From an uncultured Bacteroidales bacterium (GTDB taxonomy: Bacteria; Bacteroidota; Bacteroidia; Bacteroidales; F082), in NCBI GenBank assembly GCA_900318265.1, contig ONKA01000008.1, positions 17,697 to 81,696 on the forward strand: DNA of 64,000 nt. Reading direction: 5' to 3'. This document shows positions 53,248-56,679 of this stretch, piece after piece; position 1 is the first letter of the stretch; the number at the start of each line of letters is the position of its first letter. A program made the translations under genes and the position numbers. The notes beneath the pieces were generated by a model. It made no database searches, was not told where the DNA came from, and saw only the letters and a program-made list of their open reading frames with translations.

Positions 53248-55059
53248 TTACATTCTATTCGGCATCCCGATTCCCAGCAATTCAGAGGCATTGCGCAACA
53301 AGGCGGCCACCATGTCGCACACCTGCAGACGGAACATGCGGCGGTCGGCATCGGGTTCCTTCAGGATGCTGCACTCTTGGTAGAACTGGTTGAATTCCTT
53401 GGCGAGGTCAAAGATGAAGTTGGCAATCATTGCAGGGCTGCGGTTCTCGGCAGCTTGGTTCAAGACCATCGGCCAGCCGTACATCATCACGATGATTTCC
53501 TTCTCCTTGGGTTGCAAGTCGCTGACCTTCACCTCGCTTTCGAGCTTGATGCCTTGCTCCTCAGCCTTGCGTAACACCGAGCAGATACGGGCATGCGTGT
53601 ATTGCACGAACGGGCCAGTATTGCCGTTGAAGTCAATGGATTCCTCAGGGTTGAAGAGCATGGTCTTCTTTGGGTCGACCTTGAGGATGAAATACTTCAA
53701 GGCACCCAATCCGATGGTGTGATAGAGTTTGTCAGCTTCTTCCGGCGAGAGGTCTTTGGCCTTGCCGAGCTCATCGGAGACAGCCTTGGCTGTGGCCACC
53801 ATCTCGTCCATGAGGTCGTCGGCATCGACAACGGTGCCCTCACGCGACTTCATCTTACCGTTGGGTAGCTCCACCATGCCATAGGAAAGGTGTTCGATAT
53901 CATTACCCCACTCACGACCGAGGCGCACCAATACACGTTTCAGCACGTCAAAGTGGTAAATCTGTTCATTACCCACAACATAAATCAACTTCTCTGGGTC
54001 ATATTCCTTGACACGCAGCTGAGCGGTGCCGAGGTCTTGGGTCATATAGACCGAGGTGCCATCGCGACGGAGCAGGAGCTTCTCATCCAAGCCCTCGTCG
54101 CGGAGGTCACACCACACGGAGTTGTCGTCACGACGATAGAGGACGCCTTTTTCGAGGCCTTCCTGAACCAAAGCCTTACCCAGCAGATAAGTCTGCGATT
54201 CATAGTAAATCTTCTCGAAGGACACACCCATGCGCTTGTAGGTCACGTCGAAGCCGTCGTACACCCATTGGTTCATCGTTTCCCACAAGTGACGCACCTC
54301 GGGGTCATTGGCTTCCCATTTCACCAGCATCTCGCGGGCTTCCTGCATCAGCGTGGACTCGGCTTCGGCCTTTGCCTTGGCTTCTTCCTTGGCTTTCTCG
54401 TCCAAGGTGTCGAAGTCGGCCGGCAGCAAAGATTTCACCTCTTCCTTAAACTTCTTGTCGAACAACACATAGAAGTCGCCGATGAGATGGTCACCCTTCT
54501 TGCCCGTCGACTCGGGTGTGCAGCCATTGCCCCACTTCAGCCAAGCCAACATGCTCTTGCAGATGTGGATGCCACGGTCGTTCACGAGGTTGACGCGTAC
54601 CACTCTCTTGCCATTGGCCTTCATGATCTCCGACACGCTCCAGCCGAGGAGGTTGTTGCGGATATGACCCAAATGCAAGGGTTTGTTCGTGTTGGGTGAA
54701 GAATACTCAATGACCACGTTCTTTCCTGAAACGGGTTTGCGGCCGAACTCACGATTCTCATGGTTCGCCTTGAAGAAATCCATCCAGAACTTGTCGGAAA
54801 TCAAGAGGTTAAGAAAACCTTTCACCACATTGAACTTAGCAATCATGTCCGATTCCTTGATCATCTCGGCACCCATCTCGTTGGCCAGCTGCTCTGGATT
54901 GCGACCTGCCAGCTTCACGAAGGGGAACACCACGATGGTCATGTCGCCCTCAAACTCAGGGCGCGTCTTCTGGAAATTCACCTGCTGCACAGGCGGTTCC
55001 TGTCCGTATAAAGTTGTGAATGACTTTATGAATAATTGTCTTAATACTTCTTCTAACAT
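53248..55059 (-). CDS. argS: Arginyl-tRNA synthetase
   Basis: A 603-aa class I synthetase. The start MLEEVLRQLFIKSFTTLYG follows the promoter; 29 codons upstream would cross it. The N-terminal additional domain is followed by SPNTNKPLHLGHIRNNLLG with the HIGH motif (HLGH), KMKSREGTVV as KMSKS-like loop (about residue 404) and the C-terminal DALR anticodon-binding domain (FVQYTHARICSVLRKAEEQ ... LLRNASELLGIGMPNRM). Charges tRNA-Arg. First gene of a minus-strand group with rsmE and the DUF4159 gene. Confidence 0.97.
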   Translation of the reverse strand: MLEEVLRQLFIKSFTTLYGQEPPVQQVNFQKTRPEFEGDMTIVVFPFVKLAGRNPEQLANEMGAEMIKESDMIAKFNVVKGFLNLLISDKFWMDFFKANHENREFGRKPVSGKNVVIEYSSPNTNKPLHLGHIRNNLLGWSVSEIMKANGKRVVRVNLVNDRGIHICKSMLAWLKWGNGCTPESTGKKGDHLIGDFYVLFDKKFKEEVKSLLPADFDTLDEKAKEEAKAKAEAESTLMQEAREMLVKWEANDPEVRHLWETMNQWVYDGFDVTYKRMGVSFEKIYYESQTYLLGKALVQEGLEKGVLYRRDDNSVWCDLRDEGLDEKLLLRRDGTSVYMTQDLGTAQLRVKEYDPEKLIYVVGNEQIYHFDVLKRVLVRLGREWGNDIEHLSYGMVELPNGKMKSREGTVVDADDLMDEMVATAKAVSDELGKAKDLSPEEADKLYHTIGLGALKYFILKVDPKKTMLFNPEESIDFNGNTGPFVQYTHARICSVLRKAEEQGIKLESEVKVSDLQPKEKEIIVMMYGWPMVLNQAAENRSPAMIANFIFDLAKEFNQFYQECSILKEPDADRRMFRLQVCDMVAALLRNASELLGIGMPNRM

Positions 55060-55078
55060 AGGGTTGAAATTTATTGCA

Positions 55079-55086
55079 CAAAAATA
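55079..55086 (-). promoter_or_regulatory. -7 box (TATTTTTG) for argS
   Basis: Exact minus-strand match 19 bp before the ATG at 55059. The divergent pyr promoter lies 33 bp away. Confidence 0.6.
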
Positions 55087-55119
55087 GTAAAAAAGCTGGT
55101 CATGGAATAAAAAAAACCT

Positions 55120-55127
55120 TATTTTTG
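55120..55127 (+). promoter_or_regulatory. -7 box (TATTTTTG) for the pyrBI leader
   Basis: Exact TAnnTTTG match 155 bp before pyrB and 7 bp before the leader ATG at 55135. Confidence 0.62.
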
Positions 55128-55134
55128 CAATCCG

Positions 55135-55278
55135 ATGAGATACCAAAACAAGCCATCGGAAAAGATTATCTGCACGGAATCAAATGGTTCCATCAAATTG
55201 AATTCCCTTTTACCCCATACTGACGGTCACATTGTTGGCCGTCTTTTTTTTGCCAACAACAACAAATCAAACAAATAA
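55135..55278 (+). CDS. Putative pyrBI leader peptide, 47 aa
   Basis: An ORF of 47 codons begins with ATG 55135 just after the promoter, reads [15 protein letters not shown]..., continues through the terminator hairpin and its T8 run (encoding ...GRLFFANNN...) and ends with TAA 55276-55278, 4 nt before pyrB. The same layout, a leader of similar length crossing a UTP-sensitive attenuator and ending close before pyrB, is known for enterobacterial pyrL-pyrBI. A pyrimidine-rich run (ATTCCCTTTTACCCC, 55202-55216) precedes the hairpin, as a pause site would. Its frame differs from pyrB. No SD is seen; a transcript starting near 55131 would be almost leaderless. Open length alone could be chance, so the call is moderate. 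Confidence 0.55.
55222..55251 (+). terminator. Intrinsic terminator/attenuator in the pyrBI leader
   Basis: GACGG (55222-55226) pairs with CCGTC (55239-55243), followed directly by T8 (55244-55251). It lies between promoter and pyrB and inside the leader ORF, so it can only regulate pyrBI expression. Confidence 0.72.
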
Positions 55279-55282
55279 GCCT

Positions 55283-56203
55283 ATGTCAATATCACTGAAA
55301 AACCGCAGCTTGATTTCCATCAGCGACTACACGCCTGAGGAAATCTGCCATGTCCTCGACATCGCCGAGGACTTCGAGAAAAACCCGCACCAGAACCTGC
55401 TGAACGGGCGCATCATCGCCTCGCTGTTCTTCGAGCCTTCCACCCGTACGCGCCTGAGCTTTGAGACGGCCATCCAACTGCTGGGCGGCAACGTCATCGG
55501 CTTCAGCAGCACCGCTGGCACGAGCATCCAGAAGGGCGAATCACTCGCCGACACCATCACCATGGTGGCCAGCTATGCCGACCTCATCGTCATGCGCAAC
55601 CCCATCGAAGGCTCGGCCCGCTTCGCCTCCGAGGTATCGAAGGTGCCAGTCATCAACGCTGGCGACGGCGCCAACCAGCACCCCACCCAGTGCATGCTCG
55701 ACCTCTACAGCATACGCAAGACGCAGGGCACGCTTGAAAACCTTGAGATCACCCTCGTCGGCGACCTGAAATACGGCCGCACCGTCCATAGCCTCGTGGA
55801 GGCCATGTGCAACTTCAACGCGAAGTTCAACCTCGTCTCGCCCGTCGAGTTGAAACTGCCGAGCGTCGTTAAGCAGCACATCAAGGACCGCAACCTCGAA
55901 TACCACCAGTACACCGAGTTGGAGGATGCCATCCCCCACTCTGACATCATCTACATGACCCGCATCCAGCGCGAACGCTTCCCCGACCCCGAGGAATACG
56001 AGAAGGTGAAGAACTCCTACGTGCTGCGCAACGCCATGCTGGAGAACTCCAAGCCCAACTGCCGTGTGTTGCACCCGCTGCCGCGCGTCAACGAGATCCA
56101 CGTGGACGTCGATGCCAACCCGAAGGCCTATTACTTCCAACAGGCACAAAATGGCGTCTATGCCCGTCAAGCTTTAATTGCATCAATCTTAGGACTTAAA
56201 TAA
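55283..56203 (+). CDS. pyrB: Aspartate carbamoyltransferase, catalytic subunit
   Basis: A 306-aa protein, start [21 protein letters not shown]. Carbamoyl-phosphate binding STRTR in [15 protein letters not shown] (about residue 50), the [12 protein letters not shown] segment (about 133) and [10 protein letters not shown] near the end are all present. It makes N-carbamoyl-aspartate, the first committed step of pyrimidine synthesis. pyrI follows 8 bp later, so a class B ATCase (PyrB6-PyrI6) with allosteric control is expected. Transcription is probably controlled by the leader attenuator. Confidence 0.97.
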
Positions 56204-56211
56204 TCTGAACC

Positions 56212-56679
56212 ATGGAAAAGAAAAAAGAATTGACAGTTTCCGCCATTGAGAATGGCACCGTCATCGACCATATCCCCGCCGACAAAGTATTCCAAGTCGT
56301 CAAGATTTTGGGCTTGGACAAAGTCAGCACCCCGGTGTATTTCGGCATCAACGTAGAAAGCAAGAAATACGGCACCAAGGGCTTCATTAAAGCCTCCAAT
56401 AAGTACTTCGAGTCGGAGGACGTGAACAAGATTGCCCTCGTCGCCCCTACTGCCTCCATCATCGAAATCAAGGACTTCGAGGTCATCAACAAGCAGACGG
56501 TGACAATCCCTGACAGCATTGAGCACATCGTGAAGTGCTTCAACCCCAACTGCGTCACCAACAAGGAGCACGATGTGCCGACCAAGTTCACTGTCATCAA
56601 GGACACTCAGGGCAACATCAAACTGCACTGCCACTATTGCGAGAAGAACACCACACAAGATAAACTTGAATTCATCTAA
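56212..56679 (+). CDS. pyrI: Aspartate carbamoyltransferase, regulatory subunit
   Basis: A 155-aa protein. The N-terminal nucleotide-binding domain starts LTVSAIENGTVIDHIPADKVFQVVKIL, and the C-terminal zinc domain has the four Cys as CFNPNC (C-x4-C) and CHYC (C-x2-C). It binds CTP, UTP and ATP and contacts PyrB. Length and motifs are normal. It lies 8 bp after pyrB and 2 bp before lemA. Confidence 0.97.
   Translation: MEKKKELTVSAIENGTVIDHIPADKVFQVVKILGLDKVSTPVYFGINVESKKYGTKGFIKASNKYFESEDVNKIALVAPTASIIEIKDFEVINKQTVTIPDSIEHIVKCFNPNCVTNKEHDVPTKFTVIKDTQGNIKLHCHYCEKNTTQDKLEFI

What the first reader, a model, noticed from the sequence alone, without database searches (positions are those of the whole stretch)
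55120..55283. pyrBI leader with a terminator-spanning leader ORF in a Bacteroidetes genome
Between a TATTTTTG promoter and pyrB lies an intrinsic terminator (GACGG/CCGTC plus T8). A 47-codon ORF beginning 7 bp after the promoter reads through this hairpin and stops 4 nt before pyrB. A pyrimidine-rich run precedes the hairpin. This is the design of enterobacterial pyrL-pyrBI, where UTP-sensitive pausing couples translation to read-through. In Bacteroidetes, with a different sigma factor and weak use of Shine-Dalgarno sites, such a system would be notable and possibly convergent. The ORF start is nearly leaderless.
Basis: partly seen in the sequence, partly recalled or inferred. Interest (0 to 1): 0.78.

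Follow-up and report, generated by a model that had tools for sequence, protein, structure and literature searches.

The report
pyrL-like attenuator before pyrBI in Bacteroidales
In front of the genes that start pyrimidine synthesis, many of these gut and rumen Bacteroidales carry a tiny reading frame that runs into or through a transcription stop signal, the same layout that E. coli uses to sense low UTP, but built from unrelated sequence and, in this genus, with a start codon almost at the RNA's 5' end inside a hairpin.

Summary
A 47-codon ORF (55135-55278) starts 7 nt after a TAnnTTTG box, reads through a strong terminator (55222-55251) and stops 4 nt before pyrB; pyrI follows. In the genus, 63 of 63 distinct long leaders stay open from this ATG to the terminator and 60 of 63 through it (other frames 11/31 and 7/6; shuffles expect 17 and 15), although the terminator's frame relative to the ATG varies. 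A covariance model finds the element in 79 of 98 genomes, at 80 places, all just upstream of pyrB. A hairpin and a U-rich tract precede the attenuator, as in E. coli pyrL. No antiterminator, PyrR over cut-off or Rfam match was found. Outside the genus a first-ATG test gives 13 of 18 open to the hairpin (expected 2.9), 12 of 15 tested families reaching it. Best explanation: a translation-coupled, pyrimidine-sensitive attenuator that works like pyrL-pyrBI but is not homologous to it, with a near-leaderless start codon in a covarying 5' hairpin. UTP sensing and coupling are inferred. My open-access searches found no earlier report in Bacteroidetes.

The parts
55120..55127 (+). Bacteroidota -7 box TATTTTTG of the pyrBI promoter
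   Evidence: Sequence; TAnnTTTG with exactly 7 nt to the leader ATG in 73 of 73 distinct genus leaders. A TTG near the -33 position was found in only 25 of 73. Box position -12 to -5 in Flavobacterium psychrophilum (PMC9723704, passages) predicts a start near 55132; not measured.
55131..55160 (+). 5'-terminal hairpin, arms 55131-55137 and 55154-55160; its 5' arm contains the leader ATG
   Evidence: Inverted repeat I8; 86.3% of cells paired in 42 sequences, C-G to U-A at two pairs with U-G intermediates; fold z mean -2.64, 42 of 63 below -1.5.
55135..55278 (+). leader ORF (pyrL-like), 47 codons plus TAA, reads through the attenuator
   Evidence: in the genus open to hairpin 63/63, through hairpin 60/63; GATG columns invariant in 42/42.
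55176..55191 (+). middle hairpin GGAATC-AAAT-GGTTCC, candidate RNA polymerase pause hairpin
   Evidence: Fold; this part of the leader folds better than shuffles, MFE z mean -1.88, 50 of 63 below -1, but not at homologous bases. Role as pause hairpin inferred from E. coli pyrL.
55203..55216 (+). pyrimidine-rich tract before the attenuator, candidate UTP-sensitive pause region
   Evidence: In 63 leaders U is 0.51-0.65 and pyrimidine 0.71-0.87 in the last 18 nt before the hairpin, U 0.16-0.33 upstream of -25. In the window itself U is only 0.38, pyrimidine 0.69 over 26 nt.
55222..55251 (+). intrinsic terminator (attenuator): stem 55222-55243, T-run 55244-55251
   Evidence: stem 99.3% of cells paired in 42 sequences.
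55283..56203 (+). pyrB, aspartate carbamoyltransferase catalytic subunit
   Evidence: TIGR00670, 369.6 bits.
56212..56679 (+). pyrI, aspartate carbamoyltransferase regulatory subunit
   Evidence: TIGR00240, 150.9 bits, cut-off 148.55; found downstream of pyrB in 78 of 80 named loci, the two others (L038, L082) ending within 45 nt of pyrB.

Best explanation
This is a translation-coupled transcription attenuator of the pyrBI operon that works like enterobacterial pyrL-pyrBI. Transcription starts a few bases before the leader AUG. When UTP is plentiful, RNA polymerase crosses the U-rich tract quickly and terminates at 55244-55251 before a ribosome catches up. When pyrimidine nucleotides are scarce, it slows at the middle hairpin and U-rich tract; the leading ribosome, translating the 47-codon ORF into the stem, prevents the terminator hairpin from folding, and pyrBI is transcribed. 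The 5' hairpin that holds the start codon probably sets how fast the first ribosome loads. Shown here: conserved anatomy, an open frame kept up to and through the terminator, no detectable RNA-only antiterminator, exclusive link to pyrB within the genus. Inferred: premature termination in vivo, UTP dependence, pausing, coupling, and the role of the 5' hairpin.
For: Open frame: 63/63 to hairpin (other frames 11, 31; expected 17.1) and 60/63 through it (7, 6; expected 14.5); after clustering at 90% identity 27 of 30, at 80% 13 of 16. The invariant terminator base falls in different frames relative to the ATG (28, 11, 3 of 42), yet 42 of 42 are open to the terminator. GATG invariant in 42/42 while its pairing partners vary. 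U-rich tract just before the attenuator and a structured segment before it. E. coli pyrL has the same layout, with a described hairpin pause and UTP response (PMC10135430, passages). Antiterminator pairing absent: mean z +0.59, 0 of 63 below -1.5. PyrR model NF003549 not over cut-off, 21 vs 138 bits; no Rfam match up to E 1. Element in 79 of 98 genus genomes, 80 places, all 80 upstream of PyrB on the same strand, 25-95 nt away. Outside the genus 13/18 leaders open to the hairpin (expected 2.9; other frames 1, 4), 15/18 within 15 nt (expected 4.0; other frames 1, 6), 12 of 15 tested families. No TAnnTTTG after the terminator in 73 of 73.
Against: No expression, 3'-end, ribosome-profiling or pausing data exist here. 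Nothing I read establishes transcription-translation coupling in Bacteroidota. Coding constraint on the peptide is weak and differences are not concentrated at third codon positions. In the short-leader group 6 of 10 are open through the hairpin, fewer than frame 2 with 8 of 10, and 8 genus genomes with an assessable pyrB upstream lack the element. In 15 leaders of other families the U enrichment is small (0.36 vs 0.28, higher in 11 of 15); in the window itself U is 0.38. Most order-level upstream regions lack the arrangement (137 of 155 not testable). pyrE of this genome shows no attenuator by eye, so it is not clearly a pathway-wide system.
Confidence: 0.74

Rival explanations
1. A translation-coupled attenuator, but the signal is not UTP. 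Read-through reports ribosome supply, growth rate or another nucleotide, and the U-rich tract is only compositional.
For: In other families the U enrichment before the hairpin is small, and L352, L358 and L342 have U 0.25 there, while the frame still reaches the terminator. The window's own tract has U 0.38.
Against: Strong U/pyrimidine enrichment at the expected place in the genus; element linked only to pyrB in the genus.
Confidence: 0.15
2. An RNA- or protein-switch attenuator (PyrR-like or riboswitch) in which the 5' hairpin is the sensor and the ORF is incidental.
For: The 5' hairpin covaries; related elements score in L092, L093, L095.
Against: No antiterminator complement to the terminator 5' arm, 0 of 63; no PyrR over cut-off; no Rfam match; an incidental ORF would not be open in 63/63.
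Confidence: 0.06
3. A small protein gene with its own function that happens to overlap a terminator; the terminator ends a short mRNA.
For: pN/pS below that of the other frames; similar N-terminal residues within subclades.
Against: The frame at the terminator differs between clades (28, 11, 3 of 42) while staying open; of 63 long leaders 28 end inside pyrB and 3 inside the hairpin; peptides of other families look unrelated to the window's (by eye).
Confidence: 0.03
4. Ordinary upstream terminator that shields pyrB; pyrB is transcribed from a promoter downstream of it.
For: In many other Bacteroidales loci a terminator that appears to belong to an upstream gene precedes pyrB (by eye, listing partly cut).
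Against: No TAnnTTTG in the 26-96 nt between T-run and pyrB in 73 of 73; the promoter motif lies upstream of the terminator with fixed 7-nt spacing to the ATG; the neighbouring gene, argS (TIGR00456), is divergent.
Confidence: 0.02

Closest known systems
pyrL-pyrBI attenuator of Escherichia coli (NCBIfam NF007587, Pfam PF08052; NC_000913 4472399-4472533)
   Same: Leader ORF of similar size (44 vs 47 codons) that reads through an intrinsic terminator and stops 3 vs 4 nt before pyrB; hairpin plus U/pyrimidine-rich tract before the attenuator; T8 run; pyrB then pyrI.
   Different: No peptide similarity; Bacteroidota -7 box; start codon a few nt from the predicted 5' end inside a 5' hairpin, where E. 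coli pyrL has GGGAGGA just before its start.
PyrR-dependent attenuators of Bacillus pyr genes
   Same: Attenuation of pyrimidine genes at an intrinsic terminator (recalled).
   Different: No PyrR over cut-off with NF003549, no Rfam match, no antiterminator.
Amino-acid leader-peptide attenuators (trp/his type); clues for such systems reported in Flavobacterium psychrophilum (PMC9723704, passages)
   Same: A short ORF whose translation would govern an intrinsic terminator.
   Different: No obvious regulatory codon run (most common residues Ser, Leu, Lys, Ile); ORF runs into the terminator; no antiterminator.
Leader-like sORFs in long 5' UTRs of Bacteroides thetaiotaomicron (PMC7366714, passages)
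   Same: Same phylum; [quoted passage not shown]
   Different: The main text has 0 occurrences of 'pyrimidine'; no comparative test in the passages I saw.

Membership tests
Enterobacterial pyrL-pyrBI attenuator | Leader ORF upstream of pyrBI that reads through the attenuator hairpin | tested here: met
Enterobacterial pyrL-pyrBI attenuator | Intrinsic terminator between promoter and pyrB | tested here: met
   (by sequence; termination itself not measured)
Enterobacterial pyrL-pyrBI attenuator | Hairpin and U-rich tract upstream of the attenuator | tested here: met
   in the genus (z mean -1.88; U 0.51-0.65 in the last 18 nt); the window's own tract has U 0.38, pyrimidine 0.69
Enterobacterial pyrL-pyrBI attenuator | Homologous leader peptide (PF08052, NF007587) | tested here: not met
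   No hit for the window ORF while E. coli pyrL hits both; direct comparison E 4.4 over 3 residues
Enterobacterial pyrL-pyrBI attenuator | UTP-sensitive pausing and derepression on pyrimidine starvation | not testable with these tools
   Needs in vitro transcription and expression data
PyrR-dependent attenuator | PyrR protein in the genome | tested here: not met
   One PyrR model (NF003549): best match 21 bits against a cut-off of 138; genome 89% complete
PyrR-dependent attenuator | PyrR-binding RNA and antiterminator | tested here: not met
   No Rfam match up to E 1 in 54900-55500; antiterminator 0 of 63
Amino-acid leader-peptide attenuator | Run of regulatory codons and an antiterminator | tested here: not met
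   Composition only for codons; antiterminator 0 of 63

The most novel reading that the evidence does not exclude
Nucleotide-sensing attenuation of pyrBI is an old, widespread device of Bacteroidales, evolved independently of the enterobacterial one. In this genus it adds a timer: the leader start codon is nearly leaderless and locked in the 5'-terminal hairpin, so delayed ribosome loading decides the race with RNA polymerase. This would show functional transcription-translation coupling in a phylum that makes little use of Shine-Dalgarno sequences.
Probability: 0.4. Interest if true: 0.8.

Novelty: new variant of a known kind. Interest (0 to 1): 0.63.

Why it matters
It would extend 'repression without a repressor' of pyrimidine genes to a major phylum of gut bacteria, give an apparently independent origin of pyrL-type control, and provide a simple genetic reporter for whether ribosomes follow RNA polymerase closely in Bacteroidota. 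The natural variants (79 genomes with the element, versions with a shifted yet open frame, a short-leader group and several losses) form a ready series for experiments.

Tried and rejected
Antiterminator search: duplexes of the upstream leader with the terminator 5' arm are no stronger than shuffles (mean z +0.59, 0 of 63 below -1.5), so an RNA-only switch was set aside. PyrR: set aside. Rfam: nothing. DNA operator reading of the 5' dyad: U-G intermediates and C-G to U-A changes favour RNA; of the five covariation measures two did not exceed shuffles (pairs with a change on both sides 84/500, further pair types 483/500). Other copies of the 5' element in the genome: TTTGCANNCCGATGA occurs exactly twice, the second inside a coding sequence. 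Attenuator at pyrE: none seen by eye. Codon runs: none. Strong amino-acid conservation of the leader: not found. I first read frame shifts from hairpin-start distances (mod 3: 37, 7, 19 of 63), which depend on how the stem was delimited; one search repeats this with an invariant terminator base (28, 11, 3 of 42). Order-level test, three versions: first ATG with a strict stem search, 14 of 23 vs 3.4 expected; any ATG, 14 of 20 vs 1.5, and 19 of 20 within 15 nt vs 2.7; first ATG with a folding-based terminator, 13 of 18 vs 2.9 and 15 of 18 vs 4.0, which I rely on. They overlap in sequences; searches also include named loci L092-L112 (L094, a genus member, left out). In one search some minus-strand loci were read on the wrong strand and its output was cut; one search replaced it with tblastn placement, where 11 of 187 loci had no hit and were dropped (L311 was later placed by coordinates and inspected only). 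Direct 5' folds of 23 leaders outside the genus show no general 5' hairpin; only L092 and L109 are below z -1.5.

Full report
Observation. The downstream genes are pyrB and pyrI; the upstream gene, argS (TIGR00456), is divergent. The ORF has 47 codons, starts 7 nt after TATTTTTG, passes through the 8-bp stem and T8 run and stops 4 nt before pyrB.

Genus comparison. PyrB was searched in 99 genomes of the genus (98 with any match, some of them only weak matches to a second, related carbamoyltransferase). Upstream DNA was taken for 86 loci; four genomes with a PyrB match were not fetched (G020, G032, G058, G061). A script parsed 84; L016 and L148 failed its protein pattern and were read, both with an open leader, and are not in the counts below. 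Of the 84, 75 had promoter box, ATG and terminator (73 distinct). Of the 9 others, L028 is cut by a contig end and 8 lack the arrangement (L030, L115, L121, L123, L125, L130, L132, L139). Of the 73, 63 are long leaders and 10 belong to a short-leader group of about 80 nt.

Frame test. In the 63 long leaders the frame of the promoter-proximal ATG is open to the hairpin in 63 (other frames 11 and 31; dinucleotide shuffles 17.1) and through the hairpin in 60 (7 and 6; 14.5). The three exceptions stop inside the hairpin; 32 stop between hairpin and pyrB, 28 inside pyrB. To reduce double counting, clusters at 90% identity give 27 of 30 open (other frames 2.3, 4.1), at 80% 13 of 16 (0.8, 1.7), at 75% 8.9 of 9. 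In the 42-sequence alignment an invariant terminator base lies in three different frames relative to the ATG (28, 11, 3), yet 42 of 42 are open to the terminator: indels changed the frame while an open frame from the same ATG was kept. Amino-acid constraint is weak: pN/pS 0.51 in frame 0 against 0.92 and 0.65 in 16 pairs, 0.52 against 1.06 and 1.06 in 3 pairs; differences at codon positions 1, 2, 3 are 30, 45, 45 and 17, 15, 19. The short leaders look relaxed: 6 of 10 open through the hairpin, fewer than frame 2 with 8.

RNA anatomy. In the alignment of 42 sequences the columns GATG, containing the start codon, are invariant. The 5' hairpin around them pairs in 86.3% of cells, with C-G to U-A changes at two pairs (3 and 8 sequences) and U-G intermediates; the terminator pairs in 99.3%. 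Covariation score and cells changed on both sides exceed all 500 shuffles; pairs changed on both sides and pair types do not. The invariance of AUG while its partners vary fits a start codon. Between them the leader folds better than shuffles, not at homologous bases (z mean -1.88; 50 of 63 below -1), and U content rises to 0.51-0.65 in the last 18 nt before the attenuator against 0.16-0.33 upstream of -25; 49 of 63 have U of at least 0.4 in 26 nt. The window is just below (0.38). No antiterminator was detected (0 of 63).

Uniqueness. A covariance model of the element matches 79 of 98 genus genomes at 80 places (stricter filters, which can lose weak matches). A script found all 80 upstream of the PyrB match on the same contig and strand, 25-95 nt away. 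Of the 19 genomes without a match, 8 are the lacking loci above, 2 have a truncated pyrB or upstream (G020, G058), and 9 have no clear PyrB (G007, G016, G031, G054, G056, G084, G090, G091, G095). Among 25 loci outside the genus, including E. coli, related elements scored in Lentimicrobiaceae Hm464 (L092, E 4.7e-5), UBA5536 (L093, 6.2e-4) and UBA6207 (L095, 0.0079); six further places had E 0.28-0.86, and E. coli none.

Beyond the genus. PyrB was searched in 295 genomes of the order; 60 of these were searched again to obtain their loci, and 80 stretches were fetched. Of 155 upstream regions examined, 68 had no terminator by its definition, 68 no suitable promoter box, 1 no ATG, and 18 were tested. 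With the first ATG after the box, 13 of 18 are open to the hairpin (expected 2.9; other frames 1 and 4) and 15 of 18 reach within 15 nt (expected 4.0; other frames 1 and 6); these come from 12 of 15 tested families. Many loci lack the arrangement, and by eye a terminator of another gene often precedes pyrB. Within family f96 leaders begin alike: MKSAYLHI in L302, MKSEYLHI in L347, and MKSEHLYI in L311, read by me from the DNA.

Start geometry. TAnnTTTGC-N6-ATG occurs 22 times in this genome against 5 for the reversed pattern; 8 of 22 begin ORFs of at least 100 aa, one of them lepA (TIGR01393). So near-leaderless starts with this spacing are used. F. psychrophilum data put the box at -12 to -5 and leaderless mRNAs at 5.5% (PMC9723704, passages).

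Comparison with what is known. E. coli pyrL has 44 codons, a hairpin, a U-rich run, the attenuator, T8, and a stop 3 nt before pyrB. Its hairpin pause and UTP response are described in PMC10135430 (passages) and its use of coupling in PMC5021804 (passages). The window peptide matches neither PF08052 nor NF007587 nor E. coli pyrL directly. Hence it works like pyrL but is not a member by sequence.

Literature. Searches joining pyrBI or pyrB attenuation terms with Bacteroidetes or Bacteroides gave 0, 0 and 2 papers, the two unrelated by title; broader searches (20 of 27 listed, 15 of 55 listed) showed no title on this. A genome-wide attenuator survey (PMC2965389, passages) has 0 occurrences of 'Bacteroid' and says that, before its own Firmicutes example, no leader-peptide system was known to its authors outside Proteobacteria and Actinobacteria, apart from an atypical one. 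The main reviews were not held. The library is open-access only, so absence is not proof.

Verdict. Observation confirmed, interpretation supported on comparative evidence, mechanism inferred.

Noticed in passing
L200, L203, L204, L205 (own genome), near base 1500: Four genes whose products start MLLSLNMxAQI share an almost identical near-leaderless promoter start (TACCTTTGCGGCATGATGTTGCTG, one base different in L200).
   Followed up: no
L030, L115, L121, L123, L125, L130, L132, L139: Eight genus genomes lack the leader; L130 and L132 keep only the 5' hairpin region directly before pyrB, apparently natural deletions of the attenuator.
   Followed up: partly
L131, L134-L138, L140-L143: A group has an attenuator with a short leader of about 80 nt, and several of its frames stop before or in the hairpin, as if control had relaxed.
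   Followed up: partly
L337, L352: Leader ORFs of two other families (f55, f81) begin MKQSILKYYPLHFTHL and MRQKILKYNNLYFTYI, similar to each other.
   Followed up: no
G000:C8:60680-61183 (L378): The CarA model TIGR01368 gives only 30 bits against a cut-off of 307 in the own genome (89% complete), so the carbamoyl-phosphate synthase small subunit may be missing from the assembly.
   Followed up: no
window 55232-55239 and 55252-55259: The terminator's loop and 3' arm (TTGTTGGC) can pair with GCCAACAA just after the T-run; E. coli pyrL has a comparable GGGC / GCCC around its T-run.
   Followed up: no
e.g. L215, L221, L239 (by eye): In many other Bacteroidales loci pyrB follows a conserved gene whose end reads like ..YDLQEIG..D..K(H/Y)NL, with a strong terminator in between.
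   Followed up: no
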